Shown here: in pieces, positions 5,444-34,039 of the stretch
Layout: each line of letters begins with the position of its first letter
How positions within the stretch are numbered: position 1 is the first letter of the stretch
Assembly (NCBI GenBank): GCA_036567965.1
Contig: DATCTN010000016.1
Coordinates: forward strand, 1-64,000
From: Candidatus Kryptoniota bacterium
GTDB taxonomy: Bacteria > Bacteroidota > Ignavibacteria > Kryptoniales > JAKASW01
Reading direction: 5' to 3'
DNA: 64,000 nt
Program-made: the position numbers and the translations under genes
Notes under the pieces: generated by a model
Told to the model about the DNA's origin: nothing
The model's database searches: none
What the model saw: the letters and a program-made list of their open reading frames with translations, nothing else

Positions 5444-5445
5444 CT

Positions 5446-10597: not shown

Positions 10598-10878
10598 CCG
10601 CCTCCTTCTATTGCTGACCCTTGGTGCTCAGATCCAGTATGTCCCCTTCTTCAAAACGGGGCTGAGGGCATCTTGAGATGTACGGAAAGCCTTCGCTTCG
10701 CAGCAGCGCTACAAACTTATTTCCGTAGAGCACAATAACTTTGAGGAATATAAAGTGAAGATCGCCGGGGCGACTGCAATACTAAAACCAAAAGAAAAAC
10801 TTCTCAGCAAGCCAGGGCATTTGCAACGAATGGAGATGGACAGGAGTTTACAGGAACTAATCAGTCGAGGAGCATCTT

Positions 10879-12606
10879 ATGAAGATACCAGTTTCAATTC
10901 CCTTGTTGGTCCTAGTAAGCATCTTACTTCTATCAGTTAAGTCAAGTGCCTATCGAACCGTCGCCCCTGCCTTCAATAGGAATAACGAAGTATTTTCTAC
11001 ACGACTCCACAGCGGCAAATCCTGTGGCGGAAATATTATTCATCTGCTTCCGACATCGAATTATCCAATTCGAAGATCCGTTCCCAAGCTGGGAGATGTC
11101 GTGGGGAATGAACTGAGGGGTAAAATGATCAATCCGGATAAGGCGACGAGCTACACAACTCAACTTTATTTGCTTGACACTGTGGTCGTCTTTTCCACTG
11201 ACTCGGAACGCTATGCTTACTCATGGGATGGCGGCGGGAAGATTCTTACCGAATCAGACCAAAAGCTGGAAAATGGTCAGTGGGTAGGTATAGCGGATTA
11301 TTCTTCTACATATGACCCGGATGAAAAATGCCTTACCTCCTGGTATGAACAGTGGCAGGACGGTCAATTGACCTCCTCATCTTATCGTGATACGTATGAA
11401 TTTTATGCCAATGGGGAAATGCTTACGGAATTGGTTGAGACATGGAACGGCACTCAATGGACCAATGATAGTCTTAAGACCTATAGTTACGATGCGGCAG
11501 GCAATCATATTGGAATACTCATACAGTTATGGGAAACAGGTCAATGGGATAATTCGTTTCGGTATACGTATTCATATGACAGCACGGACAAGAACTTCGC
11601 GGAGTTGATGGAACAATGGGATGGTGTCCATTGGATCAATAACCGTCGGGATTTCTTCAGTGATTCTACCGACGAAAAAGGTGATTCCATTCATACAGAC
11701 GTGTATCAGATTCCGGTGGACACCTCGTGGGGTGACACTTCGTGGGTCAATTATTCGCGCTATACCTACACGTATGCTCCCACAGGGACACTGCTCGGGT
11801 TCGTTCAGGCATTCTGGGGGACTAGTGGGTGGTTTAACACGGTTACGGGTTCATTTCTTTACACACTTACGTATGATCAGCAGGGCAACATACTTACAAT
11901 GTTGGACCAGTACTGGACGAGCGGGCAATGGACTGATCTCTCCCTAGACACATACACGTATGATGCCGTGGGACATATGCTTACTGATTCAGAGGCGGTG
12001 TTGATGGGGGGAACGCAATGGACTCCGAGGGCAAAATATGTTCAGACTTGGGATTCTAATGGAAATTTGCTTACATGGACATTTGAACCTTGGGGAAACT
12101 CACAGTGGACGAACTATGAGCGGGACACTCTTGGTTATGATTCAGATGGGAACCAAATACTTTATCTGCACCAATCGTGGACGGGTTCTTCCTGGTTGAC
12201 CTCCGTCGGCAGTGGCGCTTACGATTATTCAGAAGTTCTGAACATTAATGGCTATTATTTTCAGTATCATGGAGATAAGGTTACATATAGCTACAGTCTT
12301 ACAACCGTCACCGCCGCGTCTTCCAAAAGCGACAAGGTCCCGATTGAATTTTACTTAAGTCAGAACTATCCTAATCCTTTCAATCCGACCACTACAATTT
12401 CTTATAATCTGCAGAAAGCGGGGCATGTGACCTTGAAAGTGTATGATGTTCTGGGAAGAGAGGTCGCGACACTGTTTGATGGCTTCAAGACTGCGGGAAG
12501 CCACACCACATCATTCGATGCTTCCGCGCTGGCGAGCGGTGTATACTTTTATAGAATTGTCGCCGGTCAATTCGTTTCAACAAAGAAAATGCTCTTGATG
12601 AAATAA
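10879..12606 (+). CDS. Type IX secreted protein with YD/RHS-like repeats
   Basis: GAGGAG precedes the ATG, and residues 1-25 form a signal peptide. Residues about 90-470 contain repeated units of 25-45 residues with the theme YTYDxxGNxLxxLxQxWxxGQW, related to YD/RHS wrap-type repeats, each with W and Q pairs. The C-terminus is a standard type IX sorting domain (LSQNYPNPFNP, VYDVLGREVATLF, GVYFYRIVAGQF, KKMLLMK). Unlike classical Rhs toxins there is no core DPxG cleavage site or toxin tip. The role is probably structural or adhesive at the cell surface. A terminator follows at 12638. Confidence 0.75.
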   Translation: MKIPVSIPLLVLVSILLLSVKSSAYRTVAPAFNRNNEVFSTRLHSGKSCGGNIIHLLPTSNYPIRRSVPKLGDVVGNELRGKMINPDKATSYTTQLYLLDTVVVFSTDSERYAYSWDGGGKILTESDQKLENGQWVGIADYSSTYDPDEKCLTSWYEQWQDGQLTSSSYRDTYEFYANGEMLTELVETWNGTQWTNDSLKTYSYDAAGNHIGILIQLWETGQWDNSFRYTYSYDSTDKNFAELMEQWDGVHWINNRRDFFSDSTDEKGDSIHTDVYQIPVDTSWGDTSWVNYSRYTYTYAPTGTLLGFVQAFWGTSGWFNTVTGSFLYTLTYDQQGNILTMLDQYWTSGQWTDLSLDTYTYDAVGHMLTDSEAVLMGGTQWTPRAKYVQTWDSNGNLLTWTFEPWGNSQWTNYERDTLGYDSDGNQILYLHQSWTGSSWLTSVGSGAYDYSEVLNINGYYFQYHGDKVTYSYSLTTVTAASSKSDKVPIEFYLSQNYPNPFNPTTTISYNLQKAGHVTLKVYDVLGREVATLFDGFKTAGSHTTSFDASALASGVYFYRIVAGQFVSTKKMLLMK

Positions 12607-17162: not shown

Positions 17163-20100
17163 ATGAAGAGACTCATACCGGGTCCGGAGTCTACACAGGG
17201 GCAATTCACAAGTTTTGCCGAAATCTTAAACCATCTCAGGAGGACACTTCTGAAATCCTCCTTACTATCCTTCGCTATCACAGGTCTGCTTGTTTGTTCT
17301 GTTCATGCTCAAACCATCTGGAGCAGCAGCAACGGAACGATCACATTTACGAAGGCAAATTACGCCGATTACACACAGGCGGCTAGTCAAGACCGCATCA
17401 CAGACAATGTATGGATTACACGTGCGGACAATCAACAGATTTTCAATATCAAAACGGAATCGTCGGCTGATGGCCACGGTGGGAGCTCACCGGCAGGAAC
17501 TGAATGGGCAATTGGGACAACAGCGGACTTTTCTTCGCTGACGTTTACATCGTGGGGAGATGCGATTACATGGGTTCCACCCCTCATGGTAGGCAAGGAC
17601 ATGGTCGTACATCTCATTGCTGATAATATCTATATCGACATCAAATTCCTCTCGTGGAGCCAGAATAGCACGGGCGGAGGATTTTCTTACGTTCGTGCCG
17701 GTGGACCACTTGAAGCGGTATCAATACCGGCGCCGCTCTTCTCAGGGACTTCGGAGACGCTTTCGGGTCAAGTGTTTTCTTCAGGGTCGGCGGCGACTGC
17801 ATATGTACTCCTTGGAACCGCGAGCGGCAATTATACCGACAGCGTTCTGGCTGCACCGTCATCCATTGGCGCCGGCACCCAGACCACGGTGTCTGCCGAT
17901 TTCTCCGGTCTTGATTCTACGAAGACCTATTACTTCTGCACATCCGCATCTAATGGCGTATTGTACAAGCGGAGCGCGGAGCTCAGGTTCTCTCACCCAA
18001 AAGTCTGGAGCAGCAGCAACGGAACAATCATATTCACGAAGGCAGCTTACGCCGATTACACACAGGCGGCTAGTCAAGACCGCATCACAGATGATGTATG
18101 GATCACGCGTGGGGACGATCAGCAGATTTTCAATATCAAAACAGAATCCTCAGCTGACGGTAACGGCGGAATCTCACCGGCGGGAACAGAATGGGCGATT
18201 GGGACAACTGCGGATATTTCTTCACTCACGTTTACGCCTTGGGGGAATGCGATTGGATGGCATCCACCCGGCATGTTGGGCAAGGACATGGTCGTACATC
18301 TTACTGTTGATAATATCTATATCGACATTAAGTTCCTCTCGTGGACGGGAAGGGCCGCCGGTGGTGGATTCTCGTATGTGCGCGCAGTGGGACCGTTTGA
18401 AGTATCGTCCGTGGCTCCGCCGCTCATGACAGGTACTTCAGAGACGCTTTCGGGTCAAGTGTTTACTTTAAGTTCAGCAGCTACGGCTTACATTCTGCTT
18501 GGAACCAGCAGCGGTAATTATACCGACAGTCTGCTTGCGACGCCGAACTCGGTTGCTGCCGGCACCCAGACAACGGTGTCTGCCGATTTTTCTGAACTCG
18601 ATACTACGAAGACATATTACTTTTGTGTTGCTGCATCGAATGGAACATTGTACAAACGAAGCGCTGAGCGAAGTTTCTCTCATTTCGTTGGAACCATCTG
18701 GAGCAGCAGCAACGGAACAATCATATTCACGAAGGCAGATTACGCCGATTACACACAGGCCGTCAATCAAGACCGCATCACAGACAGTGTATGGATTACA
18801 CGTGCGAACAGTCAGCAGGTTTTCAATATCAAGACAGAATCATCGGCTGATGGTAACGGCGGAATCTCACCGACAGGAACAGAATGGGCAATTGGGACGA
18901 CGACAGATCTGGCTTCGTTAACGTTTGGGACGTGGTATAGCACCGTCTGGTCTATCGGTGGTCCGCTGTCCGCTGTTGGTCACGACATGGTGGTTCACCT
19001 CATAGCGGATAATATCTATATCGACATTAAGTTCCTCTCGTGGACTTACGGCAACAACGGTGGTGGATTCTCGTATGTGCGCGCCGGGGGACCGCTTGAA
19101 GTATCTTCTACTACACCGTCACATGCGACACGCACTTCAGTTACAGTGGGCGGCAAAGTTTTCTCTTTGAGTTCGACAGCGGTGGCTTACGCATTATACG
19201 GAACTACCAGCGGCGCTTATACAGACAGCGTGCTTATGACGCCGTCTCCAATCACAGCCGGCTCCCAAACAGATGTCTCTGCAAATCTTTCAGGCCTGAA
19301 TAATTCAACCGCGTATTATTATTGTACTGCTGCCTCCAATGGAACACTTTATAAGAGAAGCGGCGAGACAATCTTCGCGACTCAGACTACCGAGAATTAT
19401 GCGTTGGAGTTTGACGGAACCGATGACTACGTATCGCTGCCGGCAAATTTATGGAATAACAACTTCTCTAATGGTACTGCGATAAGTGTCGAGTACTGGT
19501 TCAAAGGAACCTGGTTAAGCTCGCCGTATCGGGCTCAGGATTACAGCGGCAATTACTTCGTTCCAGGTTGGGAAAATACCAACGACGGGAATATCTATCA
19601 TATCATTTCTAACGACGGCGGCACCACCGATGGGGTTTTGATTGGATCAATTTCGACGTTGAACGACAATCAATGGCATCACATTGCAATGACGTGGCAA
19701 AAAGCCGGCCTGTTTACGAGCTATCTTGATGGCGTACAGGTGGCGCAACGCGCTGCAGCAAATGTTGATCTTCCCGCGATGAATGTCACGAATTATTTTG
19801 GGGCGTATTTCGGAAATGCTGAATTCCTTAGTGGCCTTCTTGACGAAGTGCGAATATGGAATGTCGTCCGGTCTCAAGTCGAGATTCAGTCCACCATGAA
19901 CGACACCCTTACGGGCACCGAAACAGGGCTTGTTGGTTACTGGCAATTCAACGAATCAGGAACGACCACGACCGCTTACGAACAGATGGGACTCTACAAT
20001 GGTACCCTGAATAACTTCGCATTTAGCGGCGACGGCTGGGTCACCGACTCGGACCTCGCGCTTCCTGTTCAAGCCACAGACTTTGTCGCGAAAGCAGATA

Positions 20101-20663
20101 TCGGTTCTGTCACGCTTTCCTGGAAAACCGGCTCCGAAGTGAACAACGCTGGATTTAACATCCTCCGCCGGGACGCCGGCATCGGTGCGTTCATTTCAAT
20201 CGGAGGCTACACAACCAATGCAGCGCTTAAAGGAATGGGCACCAGCACTACCGGAAGGAGTTACACCTTCACCGACACAAAAGTCAGATCAGGCGCTGTC
20301 TACGACTACAAGATTCAGTGCGCAACCGCGGACGGGATTGCCAAAGACGTTACGACACTGACAGGCATCCAGGTTGAAATTCCAAAGGATTATGCTCTCT
20401 ACCAGAACTACCCGAACCCGTTCAATCCGAGTACCACGATACGTTTCGACTTGAAGGAATCATCTACAGTGACTCTTGAGGTCTACAACATGCTTGGACA
20501 GAGGGTGATGAAACAGGATTACGGGACAATGAACGCTGGACGATACAACGAGAATATAAACATGGGTCGGTTTACCAGCGGGGTGTATTACTACCGGATT
20601 GATGTGTTGGGATCTGATGGACAGAAGTTTGTTTCGATAAAGAAGATGCTGGAGATGAAATGA
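17163..20663 (+). CDS. Large type IX secreted protein: three tandem uncharacterised domains, LamG, sorting domain
   Basis: GAGGAGGG precedes the ATG. The signal peptide is long (about 49 residues, cut after VCSVHAQ). Three copies of a 130-residue domain follow at about 51-182, 280-411 and 510-645. Each starts WSSSNGTI(T/I)FTKA and has YADYTQA, QDRIT, VWITR, SPAGTEWAIGTT, KDMVVHLI, YIDIKFLSW and GGGFSYVRA. Fibronectin-like linkers (TATAYVLLGT ... TYYFCTAASNG) separate them. A LamG-type jelly roll is at about 743-950 (YALEFDGTDDYVSLP). After a fibronectin-like segment, the C-terminus is a type IX sorting domain (LYQNYPNPFNP ... KKMLEMK). The 130-residue domain also occurs once in the next gene. 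I recognise it only as recurring in Bacteroidota secreted proteins, without known function. Confidence 0.85.
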   Translation: MKRLIPGPESTQGQFTSFAEILNHLRRTLLKSSLLSFAITGLLVCSVHAQTIWSSSNGTITFTKANYADYTQAASQDRITDNVWITRADNQQIFNIKTESSADGHGGSSPAGTEWAIGTTADFSSLTFTSWGDAITWVPPLMVGKDMVVHLIADNIYIDIKFLSWSQNSTGGGFSYVRAGGPLEAVSIPAPLFSGTSETLSGQVFSSGSAATAYVLLGTASGNYTDSVLAAPSSIGAGTQTTVSADFSGLDSTKTYYFCTSASNGVLYKRSAELRFSHPKVWSSSNGTIIFTKAAYADYTQAASQDRITDDVWITRGDDQQIFNIKTESSADGNGGISPAGTEWAIGTTADISSLTFTPWGNAIGWHPPGMLGKDMVVHLTVDNIYIDIKFLSWTGRAAGGGFSYVRAVGPFEVSSVAPPLMTGTSETLSGQVFTLSSAATAYILLGTSSGNYTDSLLATPNSVAAGTQTTVSADFSELDTTKTYYFCVAASNGTLYKRSAERSFSHFVGTIWSSSNGTIIFTKADYADYTQAVNQDRITDSVWITRANSQQVFNIKTESSADGNGGISPTGTEWAIGTTTDLASLTFGTWYSTVWSIGGPLSAVGHDMVVHLIADNIYIDIKFLSWTYGNNGGGFSYVRAGGPLEVSSTTPSHATRTSVTVGGKVFSLSSTAVAYALYGTTSGAYTDSVLMTPSPITAGSQTDVSANLSGLNNSTAYYYCTAASNGTLYKRSGETIFATQTTENYALEFDGTDDYVSLPANLWNNNFSNGTAISVEYWFKGTWLSSPYRAQDYSGNYFVPGWENTNDGNIYHIISNDGGTTDGVLIGSISTLNDNQWHHIAMTWQKAGLFTSYLDGVQVAQRAAANVDLPAMNVTNYFGAYFGNAEFLSGLLDEVRIWNVVRSQVEIQSTMNDTLTGTETGLVGYWQFNESGTTTTAYEQMGLYNGTLNNFAFSGDGWVTDSDLALPVQATDFVAKADIGSVTLSWKTGSEVNNAGFNILRRDAGIGAFISIGGYTTNAALKGMGTSTTGRSYTFTDTKVRSGAVYDYKIQCATADGIAKDVTTLTGIQVEIPKDYALYQNYPNPFNPSTTIRFDLKESSTVTLEVYNMLGQRVMKQDYGTMNAGRYNENINMGRFTSGVYYYRIDVLGSDGQKFVSIKKMLEMK

Positions 20664-20832
20664 TTTCATCATTTCATCGGAAGTCCGCCGCGCTTTTTGG
20701 CGGAGTGTTGATGAAGTAGAGATTGAACTCACCACTTTTCCCCTCGATGGCCCGCGGCTCGAGCCGTGGGTCCCGCAGGGGGAGAGGTGGCGCAACCCCC
20801 ATTCTCAAGCAGGAATAAAGACCTGGAGGAAA

Positions 20833-21993
20833 ATGAAAACGAGTAAACGTTTACTTCATCTATTCCTGATTTGGAGCCGACCGGGCGCATCTGCCCGATT
20901 CATGTGCGCGAATGCGATGCGGCTTTTGAATCCGTTCATCCTCTCTTTAGGTATCCCGGGTTTGCTGGTATTTTCTGCAGAAGCACAGACTACCTGGAGC
21001 AGCAGCAGCGGCACAATCACGTTTACAAAGTCGGATTATGCCGACTGGACACAAGCCGCGAATCAGGACCGGATTACGAGCGACGTATGGATCACGCGTG
21101 CCAACAACCAGGCCATCTTTAACATTAAGTCGGAATCGTCTTACGATGCCACTCATAATACCTCACCGGCCGGGACAGAATGGGCGATCGGGACGACGGC
21201 GGATATTCACTCATTAACGTTTAGTACCTGGTATAATACCGTTCAGTCGGTGGGAGGTCCGCCATCCTCTGTTGGCAAGGATATGGTCGTTCACCTCATT
21301 GCCGATGATGTATATATTGATATTAAGTTTCTCTCATATACCGGTGGCAATAAAGGCGGGGGATTCTCGTATGTTCGTGCCGCTGAGACTCCCCTTCCGG
21401 TCCAGGCGACCGGCTTCAAAGCGATTTCGGATATCGGCTCGATCACCATTTCGTGGAGGACGGAATCGGAGGTTGACAATGCGGGATTCGTGGTGATGAA
21501 GCAGCAATCAGGTATTAGCAATTGGCAATTAGCTGGAAGCTATAAAGCTGACCAGAATCTCGAGGGACTGGGCACGAGCAGCACAGGAAGAAATTATTCG
21601 TTCACCGACAACAAAGTCGTTTCGGGAAGGACATACGGCTACAGGGTCCAGAGTGTATCGACGAGTGGAGTCGTCAAAGGCTTATCCACAATTTCTGTTA
21701 CAGTAGATGTACCGAAGACGTTTGCACTTTATCAGAATTATCCGAACCCGTTCAACCCGGAAACAGTCATCAGTTATCAGTTGTCAGTCGCGAGTAATGT
21801 GAAGCTGGAAGTGTACAATGCGATTGGAGTGAAAGTCGCGACGCTTGCTAATGGAAAACAGGATGCAGGAGTATACGACGTGACGTTCGATGGAGCTGGA
21901 TTTGCGAGCGGAGTGTATTTCTATCGCATTGTCGCAGCAGGGGACGGCGGACAGACGTTCGTCTCGACAAAGAAGCTTATACTGATGAAGTAA
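20833..21993 (+). CDS. Type IX secreted protein with one copy of the WSSSxGTIxFTK domain
   Basis: CTGGAGGAAA precedes the ATG. The signal peptide is unusually long (about 51 residues, ending VFSAEAQ). Residues about 52-185 match the three-fold domain of the upstream gene almost motif for motif (TTWSSSSGTITFTKSDYADW, SPAGTEWAIGTTAD, GGGFSYVRA). Then come one fibronectin-like segment (GSITISWRTESEVDNAGFVV) and the sorting domain (LYQNYPNPFNPE ... STKKLILMK). Upstream and downstream genes are clear paralogs by duplication. Such cargo is normally exported by the type IX system and anchored or released. Confidence 0.85.
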   Translation: MKTSKRLLHLFLIWSRPGASARFMCANAMRLLNPFILSLGIPGLLVFSAEAQTTWSSSSGTITFTKSDYADWTQAANQDRITSDVWITRANNQAIFNIKSESSYDATHNTSPAGTEWAIGTTADIHSLTFSTWYNTVQSVGGPPSSVGKDMVVHLIADDVYIDIKFLSYTGGNKGGGFSYVRAAETPLPVQATGFKAISDIGSITISWRTESEVDNAGFVVMKQQSGISNWQLAGSYKADQNLEGLGTSSTGRNYSFTDNKVVSGRTYGYRVQSVSTSGVVKGLSTISVTVDVPKTFALYQNYPNPFNPETVISYQLSVASNVKLEVYNAIGVKVATLANGKQDAGVYDVTFDGAGFASGVYFYRIVAAGDGGQTFVSTKKLILMK

Positions 21994-24118: not shown

Positions 24119-24514
24119 ATGTTATTGCCCGTAAGTCATAACTACCATTATCTCAATACGGATGTGAGCGTTGTTAAAGACGAGAAATTGCTCGCGCTCT
24201 TCGGTGAAATTGAAGGGCTTCGGAAAGAAAAGCTTCAAGGCTTTGTTCTGCACTTTTTGACACAATCCCTGCACCCTTTCAGTAAGAACCAGAAGCGGAC
24301 GCCATTCAAGAAATCCGAATTCTCGACAGAGGAATATTTGAGAAAGAAAGTTAAGGAATTGAAGGAATCAGAGGTCTACAAGTTGTGTATTGATTTGGTC
24401 TATTTCTCCCAAAAAGGTCACATAGACGACTATGATGGTACGCAGGTTTATGTCGTGCTGAACAAGACAATCCCTGACATGAAAAAGGGAAGAAAGCAAA
24501 GAAAGACAAGCTAG
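24119..24514 (+). CDS. Hypothetical protein heading the type III R-M operon
   Basis: The 131-residue basic protein has no signal peptide. Its stop codon overlaps the GTG start of mod (TAGTG), so the two are translationally coupled. Motifs: FVLHFLTQSLHPFSKNQKRTPF in the middle and a Lys/Arg-rich tail. No known domain is recognised. The Shine-Dalgarno is poor at ATG 24119, and GTG 24161 is another in-frame start. By position it could be a regulator or accessory specificity factor of the methyltransferase, but nothing in the sequence proves this. Confidence 0.6.
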   Translation: MLLPVSHNYHYLNTDVSVVKDEKLLALFGEIEGLRKEKLQGFVLHFLTQSLHPFSKNQKRTPFKKSEFSTEEYLRKKVKELKESEVYKLCIDLVYFSQKGHIDDYDGTQVYVVLNKTIPDMKKGRKQRKTS

Positions 24515-26373
24515 TGGACGGGAAATCTTCAGACGTTAAGCGACAACAACTCGACAGGCTGAAAGTACTCTTTCCTGAAGTCATCTCCGAAGGGAAGATC
24601 GACTTTGAAAAGCTCAAGCTTACTTTAGGCGAAGATATAACGGTCGACAACGAACGATATGTGCTCAACTGGGCAGGCAAGTCCGACGCGTTCAGAGCAA
24701 TTCAGACTCCAACCACGGCGACGCTGAAGCCTCAGCGCGACCAATCAATTGACTTTGACACGACGCAGAACATCTTCATTGAGGGCGAGAACCTCGAAGT
24801 TCTGAAGGTGCTTCAGAAATCGTACTACGGAAAGGTGAAGATGATTTACATCGATCCGCCGTACAACACGGGCAACGACAGCTTCATCTATCCTGACAAG
24901 TTCAGCGAGAGCAAAGACGAATACTTGAAGCGCATTGGCGACAAAGACGAGGCAGGATACCTTACGAAGGAAGGCTTCTTCAGAAAGAACAGCAAGGAAA
25001 ATGGGCAATATCATTCCAACTGGCTCTCCATGATGTACCCGCGCCTCTTCCTCGCGAGGAATCTCCTGCGAGAAGACGGCGTAATATTCGTTTCCATTGA
25101 CGACAACGAGGTACACAACCTGCGGCTCATGATGAACGAGATTTTTGGAGAAGAGAGTCTGATTGCTTCGTTTGTTTGGCATCGAAGGCAAATGGCGGAT
25201 AGCAGGAATCAGGATCGTGCTTCAACTGACCATGAATATGTGCTTTGCTACAAGAAGGAAACAGGAGTACTTCGCGGAAGGGATATTGACACCGGGAAGT
25301 TCTCGAACCCCGACAACGACCCACGCGGGCCGTGGTTCAGTGCTGACTTGACAGGCCTTGCCACGAAGGACAAAAGACCTAATCTGCACTATGATGTAGT
25401 GAATCCTCGAACCGGCATAGTTCATCACCCGTCTACGACGCGTGGGTGGTCAGTATCGCAGGAGAAATTTCAAAAGTACATCGAGGAAGATAGAATCCTA
25501 TGGCCTGCTAAACCAGACGGACGGCCTCGCTTTAAGAAGTTCTTCAATGAGGTTACCGAATTCCAGACGGGCTTCTCTACAATGTTAAAAGTTGGGTTTA
25601 CAACTGATGGCACCAGAGAGATACAGGAAATTTTCGGAGGGAAAATAATGCCCTTCCCAAAACCCGTGGAGTTGGTAAAAACACTTATACAACAAGCGGC
25701 ATCGGGAGCCGATATTGTCTTAGACTTCTTCGCAGGCAGTGGGACAACAGCGCAGGCTGTCATGGAACTCAACAAAGAAGACAGCGGGAATAGAAAGTTC
25801 ATACTGGTACAACTTCCCGAAAAGACGGACGAAGACTCGGAAGCGTATAAGGCGGGCTATAAGACGATTGCGGATATTTGTAAAGAGAGGATAAGAAGAG
25901 CAGGACAAAAGATAAAAGGCGAAAAGGCAAAAGAGGAAGGGTTGTTCAAGGGAAAGGAAGTTGATACCGGTTTCAAGGCGTTCACACTCGAACCGTCGAA
26001 CTTCAAAGTTTGGAGAACGGATACAATGGACAACGGTGATGATCTGGTTAAGCAGATGGACGCCTTTGCCGATCCAACACGTGCAGGCTCAGAGGCAGAT
26101 GCCATGGCGTGGGAAATACTTGTGAAATCGGGCTATGAGTTGACAACGAAGTTGGAGAAGTTAACCGTCGGCGGTGTCCCAATCTATTCGATTGCTGAGG
26201 GCGAAGTTGCGCTTGCACTCGAAAAGATCTCTCGCGACGCAATAGTTGAGATCGGTAAGATGAAGCCAAAGAATTTCATTTGTCTCGACCGCCTTTTCGC
26301 CGGGAACGATCAATTGAAAACAAATACCGCATTGCAGATGAAGGATGCGGGGGTGGAGTTTAGGACAATATGA
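24514..26373 (+). CDS. mod: Type III restriction-modification methyltransferase subunit Mod
   Basis: The 619-residue protein carries motif IV IDPPYNTGND (about residues 113-122) before motif I DFFAGSGTTAQAV (about 404-416). This is the order of beta-class adenine-N6 methyltransferases, to which type III Mod subunits belong. The region between, about 150-400, is the target-recognition domain. FIEGENLEVLKVLQ upstream of motif IV is also typical. Mod methylates one strand of a short asymmetric site and recruits Res for cleavage of unmodified DNA. It starts with GTG overlapping the previous stop. A 56-bp gap separates it from the PHP-ATPase gene, and its partner res is two genes further on, which is unusual. 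Confidence 0.92.
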   Translation: MDGKSSDVKRQQLDRLKVLFPEVISEGKIDFEKLKLTLGEDITVDNERYVLNWAGKSDAFRAIQTPTTATLKPQRDQSIDFDTTQNIFIEGENLEVLKVLQKSYYGKVKMIYIDPPYNTGNDSFIYPDKFSESKDEYLKRIGDKDEAGYLTKEGFFRKNSKENGQYHSNWLSMMYPRLFLARNLLREDGVIFVSIDDNEVHNLRLMMNEIFGEESLIASFVWHRRQMADSRNQDRASTDHEYVLCYKKETGVLRGRDIDTGKFSNPDNDPRGPWFSADLTGLATKDKRPNLHYDVVNPRTGIVHHPSTTRGWSVSQEKFQKYIEEDRILWPAKPDGRPRFKKFFNEVTEFQTGFSTMLKVGFTTDGTREIQEIFGGKIMPFPKPVELVKTLIQQAASGADIVLDFFAGSGTTAQAVMELNKEDSGNRKFILVQLPEKTDEDSEAYKAGYKTIADICKERIRRAGQKIKGEKAKEEGLFKGKEVDTGFKAFTLEPSNFKVWRTDTMDNGDDLVKQMDAFADPTRAGSEADAMAWEILVKSGYELTTKLEKLTVGGVPIYSIAEGEVALALEKISRDAIVEIGKMKPKNFICLDRLFAGNDQLKTNTALQMKDAGVEFRTI

Positions 26374-26429
26374 ATCGTGATTTACGTGATTCTCATGAAT
26401 TACATTATTACTTTGATTGTGGAGGATGA

Positions 26430-29054
26430 ATGGAAGACAACGATCTCCAACATATATTCGAGCAGGGGTCTGCGTGGCTCCGTATAGATTTTCATTTGCA
26501 CACCCACGTAGACAAAGAATTCAAATACAATGGCACTGAGAGTGACTTTATTAATCAATACATCGAAAAACTAAAGAGCGAAAGCATTTCTGTTGCAGTT
26601 ATTACTAATCATAATAAGTTTTCGCTTTCGGAGTATAAAGCCCTAGCAAAAAAAGGAAGAAAGGAAGGAATTTACGTCCTGCCGGGAGTTGAACTCTCGG
26701 TAAATGACGGTGCTAATGGAATCCATACCCTCGTAGTTTTCGATCCAGGCCAATGGTTAGAAAACGCAAACGACCTTATTAACCAGTTTCTCACGACCAC
26801 TTTTTCTGGAAAAGTTAACTATGAAAACGAAAATGGGAGATCAAACCATGGTCTAACTCAAACCATTGACCTGCTGAACAAGTTTCAAAAGAACTATTTC
26901 ATTCTAATGGCCCACGTGGAACAGCAGAGCGGTTTCTTAGAAGAGCTTGATGGTGGAAGAATAATTGAGTTCGGAAAGGATCCACTTTTTAGAAAGGCTG
27001 TCTTGGGTTTTCAAAAGGTTCGAAGCAAAGAAAAGTTGGATCGCCTAACGCAGTGGTTCAATAATGAGTTGCCAGCTCGTATCGAAGGGTCAGATCCAAA
27101 ATCGATAGATGAAATTGGGAAGGGTGAAAAGACATTCATCAAGATTGGCGCATATGACTTCGATGTGGTGAAGTATGCTTTGATGGATTGGAAATATCGA
27201 GTTGGGAAGGAAATTCCTTTACTGAATCAAGCGTACGTAAAATCTATTTCTTTCATCACCAGCAAACAGGACATCAAACAAATATGTCTTAGCCCTGAAA
27301 TGAATAACTTAATCGGGATACGAGGTAGCGGAAAATCTACGCTCCTTGAAACGCTTCGTTATGCGCTGGACATAATGTTAGATAATACTCGTGTTGACGA
27401 AAAGTATAAGAATGACCTTATTTCAAATTTTCTCGGTAGTGGGGGGAAAACAAGAACAGAAATAGTCGATCACCAAGGCAATTCGATAGTTGCTGAAAAG
27501 ATTCTTGGAGATAGAACGAACGTGTACGTGAATGGGACGCTAAATCCTAGTTTGAAAATATCCGGCATCTTGAAAAAGCCGCTATATTTTGGGCAAAAGG
27601 ACTTATCCAGTATCAAGGGATCGAATAGCATTGAAAGTTTGATTAATCAATTAATCGGTGAGAAAGTCAAGGGTCATCGCCAGAGGATCGAAGACAAGAA
27701 TTCTGAAGTTGTGAATATTCTCAATGATATTTCGCGGCAGAACAGAACCCTTGCTCTTGGACCTGATCTCGAATCCCAAAAAGCAAGTTTGGAACATACG
27801 CTGAAGGCGTTTTCTGACAATGAAGTTGACAAGAAGCTGAACAAACAGGTTGAGTTTGATAAGGATGCTAGCCGTCTTAAGAATCTGATAGACTTTGAAC
27901 GTGATATTATGTCCGGCTTAGAAGAATTCATCTCCAATTATAGCGGTAGCTTTAAATCTTACATTGGCTATCAATCGAAGGAGAACGCCGACATTATCGA
28001 GAGTGCCCATCAATCATTTACCAATTTTTCTAACCTCTTCAATCAGTTGTCTGCTCTCCTATCTCAAATGAGAAAAGAACATATAGCCCTTTCTTTGATT
28101 GAGAAGCAATTCCAAACGAAATATGAGGATCTGAAGGAGGAGTTTTCTAAGATCAAGAGAGAAATAAACCTACCAAATGTTCAAGCAGATGATTATGTGA
28201 AGTTTAGAAAAGATTTGGAAAACACTAATTTCAAATTAGGAGAGCTTGAAAGGGTCAAAGCTAGATACGTTGAGATGCAAAGACAATTGGTAGTCTCTCT
28301 TACAGAGCTTCAATCGCTTTGGAACGAGGAATATGTTGTTGTTAGCGAAGAAATTCAAAAAATAAACATGGATCAGTCTTCAATTAGAATTGAAATGAAA
28401 TTCAAGGGAGATAAGGGTCAGTTCAAAGAATTCTTAAAAGACAACCTACGGGGAACAGGCATAAGAGATACGAACATCCAAACGTTAGTAGAGAGCTACT
28501 CTGATCCCATTGAAATTTATCGGGACTTGAACGAAGCATCGAGTACTACAAAAGTGAACAATATATTATCAGGTGGTGGTCAATTGGTCTCATTCAAAAC
28601 TCGGTTTGAAGAAAATCTCCCAACGTTTTTGACATACCGCGTTCCCGACTACTTTGAGATATTTTATAAAGCCAAACCGCTTGCTGAACACTCTCTAGGC
28701 CAGAGGGCTTCTGCCCTGATTATTTTCCTTCTGTCTCTGAAGGAGAATGACATTATCATCATAGACCAGCCTGAAGACGACCTTGATAATCAGACGATCT
28801 ATGACGACGTGATCCGAGTCTTGCGGGATCTCAAGACTAAAACCCAGTTTATATTTGCGACACATAATCCGAACATACCTGTTCTAGGTGATTCGGAACA
28901 AATAATAAGTTGTCGCTACGAAAACAAAAAAATTTCTGCGATCATCGGAAGCATTGACAATATAGACATTCGAAAACACATCGTGATGATTATGGAAGGT
29001 GGAGAAGAGGCATTCGAGAAAAGAAAGATGATATACGAACTATGGAACCAATAG
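26430..29054 (+). CDS. PHP phosphoesterase - SMC/RecN-like ATPase fusion (TrlF-like)
   Basis: The 874-residue protein has an N-terminal PHP domain: FHLHTH (21-26), ITNHN (about 59-63, with Asn replacing the usual Asp of TDH), LPGVELS and a later LMAHVEQ. An ABC/SMC-type ATPase follows: Walker A IGIRGSGKSTLLETL (about 292-306), a long charged helical region (about 410-700, coiled-coil-like), signature SLGQRASALI (about 752), Walker B IIIIDQPEDDLD (about 772-783) and an H-loop FATHNPNIP (about 807). PHP domains are metal-dependent phosphoesterases or nucleases. The ATPase resembles RecN/RloC/OLD-type DNA sensors. The architecture matches the family NCBI calls TrlF. Its DNA is visibly more A+T-rich than mod or res. 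It overlaps the next gene by 13 bases. It is likely a defence effector. Confidence 0.8.
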   Translation: MEDNDLQHIFEQGSAWLRIDFHLHTHVDKEFKYNGTESDFINQYIEKLKSESISVAVITNHNKFSLSEYKALAKKGRKEGIYVLPGVELSVNDGANGIHTLVVFDPGQWLENANDLINQFLTTTFSGKVNYENENGRSNHGLTQTIDLLNKFQKNYFILMAHVEQQSGFLEELDGGRIIEFGKDPLFRKAVLGFQKVRSKEKLDRLTQWFNNELPARIEGSDPKSIDEIGKGEKTFIKIGAYDFDVVKYALMDWKYRVGKEIPLLNQAYVKSISFITSKQDIKQICLSPEMNNLIGIRGSGKSTLLETLRYALDIMLDNTRVDEKYKNDLISNFLGSGGKTRTEIVDHQGNSIVAEKILGDRTNVYVNGTLNPSLKISGILKKPLYFGQKDLSSIKGSNSIESLINQLIGEKVKGHRQRIEDKNSEVVNILNDISRQNRTLALGPDLESQKASLEHTLKAFSDNEVDKKLNKQVEFDKDASRLKNLIDFERDIMSGLEEFISNYSGSFKSYIGYQSKENADIIESAHQSFTNFSNLFNQLSALLSQMRKEHIALSLIEKQFQTKYEDLKEEFSKIKREINLPNVQADDYVKFRKDLENTNFKLGELERVKARYVEMQRQLVVSLTELQSLWNEEYVVVSEEIQKINMDQSSIRIEMKFKGDKGQFKEFLKDNLRGTGIRDTNIQTLVESYSDPIEIYRDLNEASSTTKVNNILSGGGQLVSFKTRFEENLPTFLTYRVPDYFEIFYKAKPLAEHSLGQRASALIIFLLSLKENDIIIIDQPEDDLDNQTIYDDVIRVLRDLKTKTQFIFATHNPNIPVLGDSEQIISCRYENKKISAIIGSIDNIDIRKHIVMIMEGGEEAFEKRKMIYELWNQ

Positions 29055-30205
29055 AATTACTAGATTTAATAAGCAAAGGTGAGAACAGTAAAATTCAATT
29101 CAAAGAACGTGTCCTTGATGCTTACAGCATAGCTACAGAGATGGTAGCTTTTTCCAATTCAGCGGGTGGATTGATAGTCGTAGGGGTAAATGACAAGACA
29201 GGTACTTTGAACGGACTGACCTTCCAGGAACTGCAGGTCACGAATCAATTGCTGTCGAACGCAGCTTCCGATAACGTCAAGAGACCAATAACAATCTTCA
29301 CTGAAACAGTTTCGGTCTCTGGAAATAATTTGGTGGTAGTTCAAATTAACGAAGGAAGAGACAAACCCTACAGGGACAACAAGGGAATTATCTGGATTAA
29401 GAATGGCTCAGATAAACGAAAGGTTGTTTCCAACGACGAGTTGCTTCGATTATTACAGAGTAGTGGCAATATCGCTGCGGACGAACAAGCTGTTGAGAAT
29501 ACAACGTTGAACGATATTGATACGGACTTCTTTAAGAAATTTGTCGAAAGGAAAACGGGAAAAAAACTTGATGAGTTAGGTCAACCATTGCCAAAGATCT
29601 TAAGCAACATGGGATTTGCATCAGGTGATCAACTTACGCTTGCTGGGTTGCTGTTGTTTGGCAAGAGACCACAGGCATTTAAGCCTATGTTTACTGTGCA
29701 GTGCGTTGCGTTTGTCGGCAACGACCTATCTGGCACCGAATTCAGAGACAAGGCAGAGCCGATGGAAGGCAACTTGGATCTCCTCTTTGAAAAATCGATG
29801 TCCTTCATCATTAGAAACCTGCGCAAGATTCAGGCTGGAGGCTCATTTAACACTATTGGAGAATTGGAGATTCCGAGAGGTTCAATAGAAGAATTAGTGG
29901 TAAATGCTCTGATTCATCGCGACTATTTCATCCGAGCAGATGTCAAGATCTTTATCTTTGACAATAGGATTGAAATAATTAGCCCGGGTAAGTTACCTAA
30001 TACACAGACTATTGATAAGATAAAAGCCGGAACCTCAATTGTGCGCAATTCGATCCTTTTCTCAAATGCAAGGTATGTCCTCCCCTATGTAGGTATCGGT
30101 AGCGGCATACCTAGAGCTTTGAGTTTCTACTCGGATATCGAATTCATTAATGATACGGACAGGGAACTATTTAAGGTAATGATTCAGAGACCGCAACCTG
30201 TTTGA
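29042..30205 (+). CDS. AlbA_2 (Schlafen-type) / HATPase_c_4 protein
   Basis: The 387-residue protein begins with an AlbA_2 domain: EGENSKIQFKE-like start (GENSKIQFKERV), AFSNSAGGLIVVGVNDKTG at about 38-56, and RIxxDKPYRD. The C-terminal half has the HATPase_c_4 pattern: RGSIEELVVNALIHRDYF (about 279-296) and NRIEIISPGKLP (about 308-319). These proteins are usually annotated as putative DNA-binding transcriptional regulators or RecG-like ATP-binding proteins, and AlbA_2 is related to the Schlafen core nuclease. It starts inside the end of the PHP-ATPase gene (13-base overlap), and its stop (30203-30205) directly abuts the res ATG at 30206, so all three should be made from one transcript. Confidence 0.85.
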   Translation: MEPIELLDLISKGENSKIQFKERVLDAYSIATEMVAFSNSAGGLIVVGVNDKTGTLNGLTFQELQVTNQLLSNAASDNVKRPITIFTETVSVSGNNLVVVQINEGRDKPYRDNKGIIWIKNGSDKRKVVSNDELLRLLQSSGNIAADEQAVENTTLNDIDTDFFKKFVERKTGKKLDELGQPLPKILSNMGFASGDQLTLAGLLLFGKRPQAFKPMFTVQCVAFVGNDLSGTEFRDKAEPMEGNLDLLFEKSMSFIIRNLRKIQAGGSFNTIGELEIPRGSIEELVVNALIHRDYFIRADVKIFIFDNRIEIISPGKLPNTQTIDKIKAGTSIVRNSILFSNARYVLPYVGIGSGIPRALSFYSDIEFINDTDRELFKVMIQRPQPV

Positions 30206-32875
30206 ATGAAACTCCAATTCGATTCACATCAGGATTTTCAAATACAAGCGATCCAGTCTGTCGTTGACGTATTCGAAGGACAGCCTTTGAGCGCGGGCGA
30301 CTACGAATTCTCACTTCAACAAGCGGATACAAGTCTTGCATTCACAGAGAATGGCGTAGGCAACGCGATCAGACTCACCGAGCAGGAAATATTAAAGAAC
30401 GTCCGCTCTCTCCAGAAACGAAATGGAATAGAAGAGTCCTCCCAATTAAAAGGCGTCAACTTCTCCGTTGAGATGGAAACTGGTACGGGCAAGACGTATG
30501 TTTATCTTCGCACCATCTATGAACTCAATAAGACTTACGGCTTCAAGAAGTTCATTATCGTCGTGCCGAGCATCGCCATCCGGGAAGGGGTTCTCAAAAA
30601 TCTCCAGATTACACATGAGCACTTCCAAAGCCTTTACAATCGCGTTCCTTTAACATACACCGTCTATGACTCCAAGAATGTCTCAGCTTTGCGCGGCTTT
30701 GCCTTGAGCAATACGATCCAGGTACTCGTGATCAACATCGATTCTTTTGCCAAGGATGAGAATATCATTAACAAGCCGAATGACAAGCTTACTGGGAAGC
30801 GACCGATTGAATTCATTCAATACACAAATCCTATTGTCATCGTGGATGAGCCGCAGAACATGGAGACTGACCTCCGGAAGCAGGCAATCGCTAACCTCAA
30901 ACCATCATGTACTCTTAGATATTCCGCAACGCATCGGGATGTTTATAATCTTGTCTATAAACTCACTCCTGTGAAAGCCTATGACCTTGGATTGGTAAAG
31001 CAGATTGAAGTCGATTCGGTAGTCAGCGAGGACAGTTTCAACCAGGCGTTCGTGAAGCTGGAAGGAATAAAAACACAGAAGACGAGGATCAGTGCAAAGC
31101 TTACTTTCGACTATGAGGGAGCCAGCGGAGTTCTGCGCAAAACCGCGTACGTCCGTAACGGCGACAACATGTACGACCTTTCGAACAAACGTGAGATGTA
31201 CCGTGAAGGATACGTTGTCAATGAGATTAACGCTGAAGAAGGCTTCGTCGAGTTCTCAAATGGGACAAGACTTGAAGTCGGACAAACATTGGGCGGTCTG
31301 CGGGACGACATAATGAAAGTCCAGATCAGAAAGACGATCGAAGAGCACTTCCGAAAAGAGGCGATCCTTAAACCTAGAGGAATTAAGGTATTGTCGCTCC
31401 TTTTCATAGACAAGGTGAAAAACTACAGGTCGTATGATGAAGGAACAACCTCAAAAGGAAAGTTCGCATTGTGGTTCGAGGAGTTGTTCGATGAATACGC
31501 GAACAAAGAGGAGTACAACGGGCTCATCCCTTACGACGTGGCGCGGGTTCACAACGGCTACTTTGCCCAGGATAAGAAGGGGATCTTAAAGGACTCTCGT
31601 GAAGGCAGAACATCCGAAATCGATGCAGAAGCTTACGAACTGATTATGAAGGACAAAGAAAGGCTGCTTGACTTGAATGAGCCGCTTAGATTTATTTTCA
31701 GTCATTCCGCGCTAAGAGAAGGCTGGGACAGCCCGAATGTCTTCCAGCTTTGCACACTCAATGAAACCACCTCGGAGCTTAAGAAGCGTCAGGAAATAGG
31801 AAGAGGGCTGCGGCTTGCAGTAAACTCGGATGGGAATAGGGTATTCGACAAGGCTGTAAATAGGCTGACAGTTATCGCCAATGAGAGGTATGAGCAATTC
31901 GCAAAGAAGCTCCAGAAAGAAATTGAGGATGATACAGGCGAGAAATTCGAAGGACGAATAAAGAACAAGAACGATAAGAAGAAAGTAACTCTCCGCAAAG
32001 GTTACGAAGTAGACCCGATGTTCATTGAGCTGTGGCAGCACATACGTCAGAAGACCACGTACAGAGTGGAATACCAGACCGAGGAGTTGATCCGCGAAGC
32101 CGCCAACCGGGTCAGCAAGATGGAGGAGATCCTTCCCCCGCGAATTGTTGCACAACGCACGACGGTTGTCATGGATTCAGGCGGCTTGTCGGGAGAGATC
32201 GCCTCAACCAAGTTCTATTCGCCCGAATATGGCACCGTGGCGATCCCCGATATCGTTGGATACATTGAACAAAGAACTCATCTTACCCGGTCAACGATAA
32301 GGGAGATTCTTCGCAAGTCTGGAAGACTCCTCGATTGCCTGAAGAATCCTCAGCTGTTTCTTGAAAACACAGTTCACGAGATAAGGACCAAGTTGGAATC
32401 CATAATGGTCGAGGGAGTGAAGTACCAGAAGATAGAGAACGAATACTATGAGATGCGGCAATTCGCGTCGGACGAAATCGAGGAATACCTGACGAATCTT
32501 TACAGTGTTAAGAACAAAGAGAAGACCATCTTCGATAACATAGAGATAGATTCGCTTTCAGAGACTGAACGCAAGTTTGCAAAGGCGTGCGACGACAGCG
32601 ATGACGTAGAGTTCTTCTTGAAGCTTCCGCGCTGGTTTGAGATAGAAACGCCGGTTGGAAAATACAGACCCGATTGGGCTTTGATGTTGAAGAAAGAAAA
32701 GCGGCTTTACTTCGTTGCAGAAACCAAATCGACGCTAGATAAATCCAAGCGCCTTGAAAGCGAAAACCAGAAGATCGAATGCGGGAAGAAACATTTTGCC
32801 CAACTCAAGGAAGTTCATTTTACAGAGGCGACAAAGCTTGAAGACGTAGAAAGGGAGGCGAGTCAGCTCAAGTAG
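30206..32875 (+). CDS. res: Type III restriction endonuclease subunit Res
   Basis: The 889-residue protein is a DEAD-like superfamily 2 translocase with Walker A METGTGKTYVYLR (about 90-102), a DEPQ box (IVDEPQNM, about 211-218), SATH at about 240, and motif VI KRQEIGRGLRL (about 527-537). The C-terminus has a PD-(D/E)XK nuclease: YRPDWALML (about 820) and VAETKST (about 838-844). This is the standard length and order for type III Res, which needs Mod for site recognition and ATP for translocation between two sites. The start abuts the stop of the AlbA_2 gene. All motifs look intact, so the system should be active. Confidence 0.93.
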   Translation: MKLQFDSHQDFQIQAIQSVVDVFEGQPLSAGDYEFSLQQADTSLAFTENGVGNAIRLTEQEILKNVRSLQKRNGIEESSQLKGVNFSVEMETGTGKTYVYLRTIYELNKTYGFKKFIIVVPSIAIREGVLKNLQITHEHFQSLYNRVPLTYTVYDSKNVSALRGFALSNTIQVLVINIDSFAKDENIINKPNDKLTGKRPIEFIQYTNPIVIVDEPQNMETDLRKQAIANLKPSCTLRYSATHRDVYNLVYKLTPVKAYDLGLVKQIEVDSVVSEDSFNQAFVKLEGIKTQKTRISAKLTFDYEGASGVLRKTAYVRNGDNMYDLSNKREMYREGYVVNEINAEEGFVEFSNGTRLEVGQTLGGLRDDIMKVQIRKTIEEHFRKEAILKPRGIKVLSLLFIDKVKNYRSYDEGTTSKGKFALWFEELFDEYANKEEYNGLIPYDVARVHNGYFAQDKKGILKDSREGRTSEIDAEAYELIMKDKERLLDLNEPLRFIFSHSALREGWDSPNVFQLCTLNETTSELKKRQEIGRGLRLAVNSDGNRVFDKAVNRLTVIANERYEQFAKKLQKEIEDDTGEKFEGRIKNKNDKKKVTLRKGYEVDPMFIELWQHIRQKTTYRVEYQTEELIREAANRVSKMEEILPPRIVAQRTTVVMDSGGLSGEIASTKFYSPEYGTVAIPDIVGYIEQRTHLTRSTIREILRKSGRLLDCLKNPQLFLENTVHEIRTKLESIMVEGVKYQKIENEYYEMRQFASDEIEEYLTNLYSVKNKEKTIFDNIEIDSLSETERKFAKACDDSDDVEFFLKLPRWFEIETPVGKYRPDWALMLKKEKRLYFVAETKSTLDKSKRLESENQKIECGKKHFAQLKEVHFTEATKLEDVEREASQLK

Positions 32876-32948
32876 GGCAAGCCGTCGAACAAGCTTATGG
32901 CCGCATGCCTGCAATCCAATAGTGGGACCGAAATCAAAGGAGGATATC

Positions 32949-33233
32949 ATGCCAAGTTACACAGTGCGAGTCGAACTGCACACCGGTACTGAGCAGGATT
33001 ATGAAGAACTTCACGGTTACATGGAAGCGCAGGGGTTTGAGCGCACGATTACCGGTGATGACAAAAAAGAGTGCAAAATGCCACCGGCCGAGTATGTTAT
33101 GCGAAATGTGGGAATCGGCATTGATATCGTCTTATCGAAAGCGAATAACGCTGCTGCACTTACGTTCAAATCTCACGCCGTTTTAGTTTCAGAGACGACC
33201 CAATGGAAGTGGATCAACCTCGACACAGTCTAG
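32949..33233 (+). CDS. DUF2622-like small protein
   Basis: The start is ATG 32949 after AAAGGAGG; the longer frame lacks any signal. The 94-residue protein begins MPSYTVRVELHTGTEQDYEE and continues LHGYMEAQGFERTITGDD, then MPPAEYV and a final SETTQWKWINLD. This fits the small ferredoxin-fold family DUF2622, the broad group that also contains the GhoS antitoxin ribonuclease. The family match is from memory of the pattern and its activity is unknown. It lies 73 bases after res on the same strand and may belong to the same island. Confidence 0.6.
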   Translation: MPSYTVRVELHTGTEQDYEELHGYMEAQGFERTITGDDKKECKMPPAEYVMRNVGIGIDIVLSKANNAAALTFKSHAVLVSETTQWKWINLDTV

Positions 33234-33279
33234 CATTACGAGCAATAAAGGTTCGTTCGACAATTTACTGGAGGGAAAA

Positions 33280-33801
33280 ATGCTTTACTCGATCCATGGG
33301 CCATATGAGATTCCAAGGCAGAACACAGTCGTAGATCGTAGCGCCGAAGCCTTGACCGACCTCTGGCAAGAGATCGAGGATAACTACGAGGGACTCCCAG
33401 AAGGATGCGGTTGCTACCTTTTCGCGTTGAGGGCCGGAAAGGGGATTACCCCATGGTATGTCGGCGTCGCCGAGAAGCAGTCCTTTCAACGAGAGTGTTT
33501 TTCACCTCATAAGATCAGTATCTATAACGACGTGCTTGACGAATGGAAGGGGACGCCGCTTCTGTACCTTGTGGCGCGAAATACTCCCGAAGCGCGATTC
33601 TCAGCGCCAAGCCGCAGGGGGCATCCATCTGCCAGGTATTTGGAATTAATTCTCATCAGCAGAGCCATGGAGAAGAATCCAGAGCTCATGAACAAGAGAG
33701 ACACCAAGCTCTTGCGAGACATGGTTGTTCCGACCATTCTCAATTCCCCTCCGGGCCGCCGCACTCTGGATGAAGAAGAGTTTCTATTGGCCTTGCAGTA
33801 G
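33280..33801 (+). CDS. GIY-YIG-like protein
   Basis: The 173-residue protein has TGGAGGG upstream of its ATG. The segment EGCGCYLFALRAGKGITPWY then VGVAEKQSFQRECFSPHK resembles a GIY-YIG nuclease core: GCYLF stands for GIY, WYVG for YIG, and a following R in QRE could be the catalytic arginine. A later glutamate (ARYLELILISRA) could be the metal ligand. GIY-YIG domains act in repair, homing and restriction. The rest of the protein is unrecognised. It is 46 bases downstream of the DUF2622-like gene on the same strand, followed by a small CxxC gene. Confidence 0.6.
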   Translation: MLYSIHGPYEIPRQNTVVDRSAEALTDLWQEIEDNYEGLPEGCGCYLFALRAGKGITPWYVGVAEKQSFQRECFSPHKISIYNDVLDEWKGTPLLYLVARNTPEARFSAPSRRGHPSARYLELILISRAMEKNPELMNKRDTKLLRDMVVPTILNSPPGRRTLDEEEFLLALQ

Positions 33802-33832
33802 GCATGGACTTCTAAAATTGGAGTTGCTGACT

Positions 33833-34039
33833 ATGTGCGGCACATGCGGTCGCATATGGGAAACCGCAATTGCCATGAATCTTGTGGGTGCTCCGCACGT
33901 GCACGAGCTGCTGCCAGGAAGCGATCACAACCGAACACACTGTGATAACGGTAGGCCCATCGAAACCATGAACTACTACTTCATCGAGCAGCCACGAACG
34001 GGCCAGATTTATTCCTTCTCAGTGCCGACAGAGAGTTAA
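33833..34039 (+). CDS. Small CxxC protein (68 aa)
   Basis: The frame starts at ATG 33833 with GGAG eight bases before, 31 bases after the GIY-YIG-like gene. It reads MCGTCGRIWETAIAMNLV, then HVHELLPGSDHNRTHCDNG and a hydrophobic end. One CxxC pair plus His/Cys residues (HVHE, THCD) suggest a small metal-binding fold. No family is recognised. Tight spacing suggests it is co-transcribed with the upstream gene. Confidence 0.5.
   Translation: MCGTCGRIWETAIAMNLVGAPHVHELLPGSDHNRTHCDNGRPIETMNYYFIEQPRTGQIYSFSVPTES

What the first reader, a model, noticed from the sequence alone, without database searches (positions are those of the whole stretch)
24119..34039. Type III R-M operon with a PHP-ATPase and an AlbA_2 protein nested between mod and res, plus a tail of small nuclease-like genes
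Mod (24514-26373) and Res (30206-32875) are normally adjacent. Here two genes separate them: a PHP phosphoesterase/SMC-like ATPase (26430-29054) and an AlbA_2/HATPase protein (29042-30205). Overlap of 13 bases between the two, direct abutment to res, and the common strand show designed co-expression. The ATPase gene is visibly more A+T-rich than mod and res, as if a two-gene defence module had been inserted into an R-M operon. DUF2622-like, GIY-YIG-like and CxxC genes follow at short distance. Whether the whole acts as one system (for example R-M cleavage products sensed by the ATPase) or as a stack of independent defences is open.
Basis: partly seen in the sequence, partly recalled or inferred. 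Interest (0 to 1): 0.8.

Follow-up and report, generated by a model that had tools for sequence, protein, structure and literature searches.

The report
Growth-arrest gene pair inside restriction operon
A mobile two-gene growth-arrest module (trlF and trlG, known from Photorhabdus) sits between the methylase and nuclease genes of a bacterial DNA-restriction operon, in a slot that related bacteria fill with other anti-virus genes, so it looks like an interchangeable second line of defence rather than one fixed machine.

Summary
The operon is orfA-mod-trlF-trlG-res, on one strand, with a 13-base trlF/trlG overlap, trlG abutting res, and foreign composition in trlFG. The "PHP-ATPase" is TrlF (NCBIfam NF045780, above cut-off). 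The AlbA_2/HATPase protein matches TrlG, its partner in the Photorhabdus temperature-restricting locus.

Of about 29 sampled operons in the phylum with both genes visible, two are adjacent. The rest carry RhuM+Fic, YhcG nuclease, GmrSD, HEC-01, Abi_2, AlbA_2 proteins or transposases. Four same-genus genomes with 85-87% identical Res carry four other cargos; homology stops at the mod stop codon and resumes at the res start.

Yet mod-trlF-trlG-res recurs in ten other loci from about five phyla, by repeated assembly: TrlF and Res identities are discordant and the trees force several changes. TrlFG also nests in type I R-M, BREX and type IIG/Hma-like operons, or stands alone.

Best reading: a mobile PrrC-like back-up module in an exchangeable cargo slot. 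That it guards the R-M system is inferred. TrlG lacks one catalytic acid of Schlafen RNases, so TrlF's PHP domain is the likelier effector. The tail genes are not part of it.

The parts
24119..24514 (+). orfA, 131 aa, no known family; belongs to this type III operon
   Evidence: Homologues at 49-52% identity directly upstream of mod in same-genus genomes G002 and G006; no family hit.
24514..26373 (+). mod, type III DNA methyltransferase (619 aa; DPPY motif)
   Evidence: MTase_III 5.8e-201, N6_N4_Mtase 6.5e-35.
26430..29054 (+). trlF: N-terminal PHP metallophosphoesterase plus SMC/RecF/Rad50-like ATPase with short coiled coil (874 aa)
   Evidence: NF045780 above cut-off; PHP ligands H22, H24, D28, H61, E88, H99, H162, D222 invariant in 49/49, Walker A K302, SxGQ signature and Walker B E782/D783 invariant; model pLDDT 85.6 matches SMC/JetC/RecF/Rad50 heads.
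29042..30205 (+). trlG: AlbA_2 (Schlafen-like) domain 14-128 plus HATPase_c_4 300-363 (387 aa)
   Evidence: Pfam; same domain coordinates as Photorhabdus TrlG (PMC7554251); 10 of 11 missense sites needed for growth arrest identical; model pLDDT 90.9 matches 3lmm and Schlafen N-domains.
30206..32875 (+). res, type III restriction helicase-nuclease (889 aa)
   Evidence: REase_III 1.3e-291, ResIII, PF19778 endonuclease domain; 85-87% identical to Res of four same-genus genomes.
26374..30205 (.). exchangeable cargo slot, from mod stop to res start
   Evidence: In five same-genus operons homology runs through the mod stop and resumes at the res ATG with nothing shared between; five different contents.
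32949..33233 (+). small ORF after res (ATG start behind AGGAGG); flanking gene, not part of the system
   Evidence: Weak YmfI-like hit below cut-off; no homologue beside any other res.

Best explanation
A laterally mobile TrlF-TrlG growth-arrest module occupies the exchangeable cargo slot between mod and res of a type III restriction-modification operon. Shown: the identity of both proteins, their conserved translational coupling, the slot and its exact borders, repeated independent assembly, and nesting in several other modification-based defence operons. Inferred: it works like PrrC inside EcoprrI. It is co-expressed with the R-M genes, stays silent while restriction works, and stops cell growth when phage DNA, DNA ends or inhibition of restriction is sensed. 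In this model TrlF senses aberrant DNA with its SMC/RecF/Rad50-like head and its PHP domain is the damaging phosphoesterase. TrlG is a nucleic-acid-binding and regulatory partner needed for arrest. It does not depend on any particular R-M enzyme.
For: Identity. The Photorhabdus TRL operon trlR-trlF-trlG causes growth arrest, and trlG mutations relieve it (PMC7554251). TrlFG is nested in type III, type I, BREX with pglX/pglZ and IIG or Hma-like operons. R-M/BREX genes are the neighbour in 30-34% of loci at +/-1 gene, against 3-7% at +/-4 to 6 genes. Slot. Other slot cargos are known or candidate defence modules (HEC-01A/B, HEC-06, PDC-S02, PDC-M59A/B, AbiD, PDC-S13/31/32). Independent assembly: TrlF tree, Res tree with 8 forced changes in 9 rows, discordant identities, remnant of a res start after trlG in L042. 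Stand-alone Bacteroidota copies have a small XRE-type HTH gene upstream that nested copies lack. PrrC precedent: PMC3710099, PMC12707154.
Against: No phage-defence assay of TrlFG was found; the only published phenotype is temperature-dependent arrest, and no mutations were seen in trlF (PMC7554251). About half of the loci with good flanks (21 of 39) have no R-M neighbour, and in a phylum-wide family sample only about 6 of 36 do, so coupling to R-M is not obligatory. The 80-locus set is biased towards window-like TrlF and rich in short metagenome contigs.
Confidence: 0.6

Rival explanations
1. A stack of independent defences. TrlFG gains only the R-M promoter and the maintenance (addiction) provided by the R-M genes, with no functional talk between them.
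For: Cargo is exchangeable and unrelated in type; TrlFG also stands alone; identities are discordant.
Against: Enrichment of TrlFG next to modification-based systems at +/-1 and repeated arrival at the same slot by separate TrlFG lineages suggest some benefit of the pairing.
Confidence: 0.25
2. One composite type III machine. TrlF and TrlG are subunits that use Mod for target recognition and act together with Res.
For: Same gene order in 11 loci (about five phyla), with res abutting or overlapping trlG in most.
Against: The same Res lineage works with many other cargos, TrlFG works in unrelated operons, and the trees are discordant.
Confidence: 0.08
3. A stress or temperature growth-control locus rather than phage defence.
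For: The only measured phenotype is arrest at 36 C in Photorhabdus (PMC7554251).
Against: Patchy, mobile distribution, defence-operon neighbourhoods and defence-type alternatives in the same slot. Arrest on heating could be misfiring of a defence module (inference).
Confidence: 0.07

Closest known systems
Photorhabdus temperature-restricting locus trlR-trlF-trlG (PMC7554251)
   Same: Both proteins, gene order, TrlG domain coordinates and 10 of 11 functionally required TrlG residues.
   Different: Photorhabdus TRL stands alone between polA and dsbA with its own regulator trlR. Here there is no trlR; the pair is inside a type III R-M operon.
EcoprrI-PrrC (anticodon nuclease embedded in a type I R-M operon)
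   Same: An SMC/ABC-type ATPase module nested between R-M genes, proposed as second line.
   Different: PHP and AlbA_2/GHKL proteins instead of a HEPN anticodon nuclease; type III instead of type Ic; no functional data.
TrlFG nested in the type I R-M operon of IncA/C and Yersinia ruckeri plasmids
   Same: Same pair within an hsdR-trlF-trlG-hsdS-AAA-hsdM operon (IncA/C plasmid); pYR3 with type I methylase genes beside the pair (PMC7554251).
   Different: Different R-M type; TrlF about 40% identical.
'Guilt-by-embedding' candidates of PADLOC (HEC, PDC)
   Same: Defence genes embedded in other defence operons; several fill the same mod-res slot in relatives.
   Different: TrlF scores only weakly against PDC-M49A (2e-17) and Ppl; TrlFG is not a PADLOC system of its own.
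Schlafen-family RNases reported beside BREX loci (PMC12839542)
   Same: AlbA_2 plus minimal histidine-kinase domain.
   Different: TrlG has Gln19 in 64 of 65 sequences where active Schlafens have an essential Glu.

Membership tests
TrlF family (NF045780) | score above the curated cut-off | tested here: met
   502.8 bits against 350, 13-869 of 874 aa.
TrlF family (NF045780) | intact PHP metal site and ABC ATPase motifs | tested here: met
   Eight PHP ligands and ATPase motifs invariant in 49/49; position 224 is Lys where a ninth ligand His is usual in other PHP enzymes (own knowledge).
TRL (trlRFG) locus | trlF followed by trlG with overlapping reading frames | tested here: met
   13-base overlap; same class of overlap in 68 of 79 junctions.
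TRL (trlRFG) locus | small regulator trlR upstream | tested here: not met
   mod lies 56 bases upstream of trlF; no small HTH gene.
TRL (trlRFG) locus | temperature-dependent growth arrest | not testable with these tools
   Needs culture work; 10 of 11 required TrlG sites conserved.
Type III R-M | Mod methylase and Res helicase-nuclease encoded together | tested here: met
Type III R-M | site-specific methylation and two-site cleavage | not testable with these tools
   Needs methylome or cleavage assay.
PrrC/RloC | embedded in an R-M operon | tested here: met
PrrC/RloC | ATPase fused to HEPN anticodon nuclease | tested here: not met
   TrlF has PHP, no HEPN hit.
PrrC/RloC | held silent by the R-M proteins, released by anti-restriction | not testable with these tools
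   Needs experiment.
Ppl anti-phage protein (NF042955) | score above the curated cut-off | tested here: not met
   162.5 bits against 1000.
Catalytic Schlafen RNase | Glu-Glu-Asp triad | tested here: not met
   E14 kept, second Glu replaced by Q19 in 64/65; E210A abolishes rSLFN13 activity (PMC5862951).

The most novel reading that the evidence does not exclude
TrlFG is a general guard of modification-based immunity. It is kept quiet by a working R-M or BREX complex, arrests the cell when that complex is inhibited, and the Photorhabdus temperature restriction is the misfiring of a stand-alone copy. The type III mod-res interval is a dedicated exchange site through which such guards are swapped.
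Probability: 0.22. Interest if true: 0.75.

Novelty: new variant of a known kind. Interest (0 to 1): 0.5.

Why it matters
It links a locus known only as a temperature-restriction system to phage-defence operons and gives a testable explanation for that odd phenotype. It also shows a natural cargo slot with exact borders inside type III R-M operons, where five congeners hold five different contents. That makes the question of whether embedded modules sense the state of their host R-M system directly testable, and it is a search rule for new defence genes. A secondary point: TrlG, easily annotated as a Schlafen RNase, lacks an essential catalytic acid across the family.

Tried and rejected
(1) Tail genes as part of the system: no homologue beside res elsewhere. 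(2) Filing TrlF as Ppl, Spaf_1101 or PDC-M49: scores below cut-off or partial. (3) TrlG as an active Schlafen RNase: fold matches but Q19 replaces the second Glu. (4) A single ancestral composite operon: the Res tree needs 8 changes for 9 TrlFG rows and the TrlF tree at least 7, although counts cannot tell gain from loss. (5) A general claim that TrlF is R-M-linked: a family-wide phylum sample showed about 6 of 36 R-M-adjacent and no further type III nesting, so the claim is restricted to the TrlFG subfamily. (6) TrlR homology across stand-alone copies: the small upstream genes fall into several unrelated groups, two of them XRE-type HTH. (8) Literature searches for TrlF in defence or for genes between mod and res gave nothing beyond the Photorhabdus paper.

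Full report
OBSERVATION. The ORF scan and translations reproduce all named genes. Mod (24514-26373) and Res (30206-32875) are a clear type III pair. Between them lie an 874-aa protein and a 387-aa protein whose genes overlap by 13 bases; the second abuts res. trlF and trlG have GC3 of 0.42-0.44 against 0.57 for mod and res, so the remark about composition is right.

IDENTITY OF THE NESTED PAIR. The 874-aa protein is TrlF (NF045780, 503 bits, cut-off 350). The 387-aa protein has AlbA_2 at 14-128 and HATPase_c_4 at 300-363. TrlG of Photorhabdus, its partner in the temperature-restricting locus, has them at 14-128 and 298-365 (PMC7554251). In that paper trlG mutants escape growth arrest at 36 C; no mutations were seen in trlF. 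Of the 11 TrlG missense sites found there, 10 are identical in the window protein and the eleventh (R80) is Lys. The same paper notes that the Yersinia ruckeri plasmid pYR3 copy has type I methylase genes between trlR and the pair.

PROTEIN ANATOMY. TrlF: eight PHP metal-ligand positions and all ATPase motifs are invariant across 49 homologues; position 224 is Lys in 46 of them. The AlphaFold model (pLDDT 85.6) matches SMC, JetC, RecF and Rad50 heads. TrlG: the model (pLDDT 90.9) matches 3lmm, Schlafen 11/13/14 N-domains and, at the margin, the SAMD9 tRNase domain. The profile aligns TrlG E14 and Q19 with the TESTHVEFK stretch of SLFN14, so Q19 falls on the Glu mutated in the E211A structures. 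Q19 is present in 64 of 65 TrlG. In rat SLFN13 the corresponding E210A is inactive (PMC5862951; the correspondence between Schlafens is by motif spacing). I therefore infer that TrlG is probably not a canonical Schlafen RNase, and that PHP is the likelier catalytic centre. This is inference.

THE SAME ORDER ELSEWHERE. A search of 84,980 genomes with a TrlF alignment kept 80 loci. In ten of them TrlFG lies in the same order with type III mod and/or res: L041 and L042 (Nitrospirota), L044, L055, L061 and L064 (Bacteroidota), L046 and L065 (Ignavibacteriota), L054 (Bacillota bin) and L056 (Deltaproteobacteria/Myxococcota bin). Both mod and res are visible beside trlF-trlG in L041, L042, L044, L055, L056, L064 and L065 (mod only as its tail in L041 and L044; res cut by the contig end in L044 and L056; trlG frameshifted in L042). 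L046, L054 and L061 are cut by contig ends. L044 is the same contig as L035, so it is counted once. Many are metagenome bins; the phylum count is approximate.

OTHER SETTINGS OF TRLFG. Type I: hsdR-trlF-trlG-hsdS-AAA-hsdM on IncA/C plasmids and in L036; hsdM-hsdS-trlF-trlG-hsdR in L100, L107 and L112. BREX: brxC...pglX-trlF-trlG-pglZ in L099; PglXI-type in L073 and, by similarity, L075, L080 and L093. IIG plus helicase: L097, L110. Hma-like: L103. Stand-alone: Photorhabdus and many Bacteroidota, the latter often with a small XRE-type HTH gene upstream. R-M/BREX genes are the same-strand neighbour in 30-34% of loci at +/-1 gene and 3-7% at +/-4 to 6. This sample is biased to window-like TrlF. 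A family-wide sample in the window's phylum gave 36 loci with about 6 R-M-adjacent and no further type III nesting.

THE SLOT. Four same-genus genomes have Res at 85-87% identity and Mod at about 60-74%, but no TrlF. Between mod and res they carry: an AlbA_2 protein plus Y1 transposase; DUF559, PDC-S32, PDC-S31 and DUF3800 proteins; a Y1 transposase with a broken mod; and an NsnB/HEC-like ATPase with a second ORF. An alignment of the junctions shows homology up to the mod stop codon and again from the res start codon, with nothing shared between. A survey of this Res family in 396 genomes of the phylum gave 33 genomes. Where both genes were visible on the contig (about 29 operons), only L181 and L194 had mod next to res; the others held RhuM+Fic, RhuM+SoFic, YhcG/DUF1016 nuclease, GmrSD, AAA_21+DUF4276, Abi_2, AlbA_2+ParA, DUF488 or transposase genes. 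Several match PADLOC defence candidates found by embedding (HEC-01A/B, HEC-06, PDC-S02, PDC-M59A/B, PDC-M19B, AbiD; the approach is described in PMC10855318 and PMC12988326). On nine named plasmids, eight from outside the phylum in NCBI terms, six have mod-res adjacent and three have cargo. The survey is dominated by one family (f33), so the exact rate should not be generalised.

HISTORY. Identities are discordant: window-L041 TrlF 77%, Res 61%; window-L055 TrlF 50%, Res 57%; L041-L054 TrlF 56%, Res 77%; L055-L056 TrlF 76%, Res 66%. In the TrlF tree the type III label needs 7 changes, all forced by well-supported branches. In the Res tree TrlFG needs 8 changes for 9 rows, all forced, and the window groups with the four congeners that carry other cargo. 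Both are quick trees and counts do not separate gain from loss. In L042 the stretch after trlG begins with 25 codons of a res start (72% identical to L041 Res), followed by unrelated sequence and then the intact res: a footprint of cargo exchange.

MECHANISM. Shown: a mobile, co-translated pair placed repeatedly in a borrowed slot of modification-based defence operons. Inferred from EcoprrI-PrrC (PMC3710099; PMC12707154) and from the Photorhabdus phenotype: back-up growth arrest when restriction is overcome. Nothing here tests whether TrlFG senses the R-M proteins, DNA ends or something else. A stack of independent defences remains possible (0.25).

NOVELTY. Defence modules embedded in R-M and Hma/BREX operons are a known kind, and TrlF and TrlG are known proteins. 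I found no report of TrlFG as phage defence, of TrlFG in type III operons, or of the mod-res interval as an exchangeable slot, within an open-access library only. Hence a new variant of a known kind, of moderate interest.

Noticed in passing
L042:13652-14257: After trlG an ORF begins with 25 codons of a res start and continues into unrelated sequence before the intact res: a recombination footprint in the cargo slot.
   Followed up: partly
L131, L132, L133, L134 (same-genus genomes): Four different cargos between mod and a nearly identical res, including Y1 (REP-type) transposases in two of them, a possible route of exchange.
   Followed up: yes
L180, L182, L184, L186, L189 and relatives: A complete RhuM-like plus Fic pair (PDC-M59A/B) between mod and res is the commonest cargo in one family of the phylum.
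   Followed up: partly
L032, L034, L092, L109: TrlF homologues without TrlG, e.g. on Listeria plasmids (L032) and beside a RecB-like nuclease next to BREX genes on a Vibrio plasmid (L034); they may use another partner.
   Followed up: no
window 2647-12606, 17163-21993, 49139-53029: Several secreted-type proteins share a C-terminal region; the one ending at 3075 contains SLGQNYPNPFNPNT, resembling a type IX secretion sorting motif (own knowledge).
   Followed up: no
window 24119-24514: orfA precedes mod in congeners too and has no known family; it may be a conserved regulator or partner of this type III subgroup.
   Followed up: no
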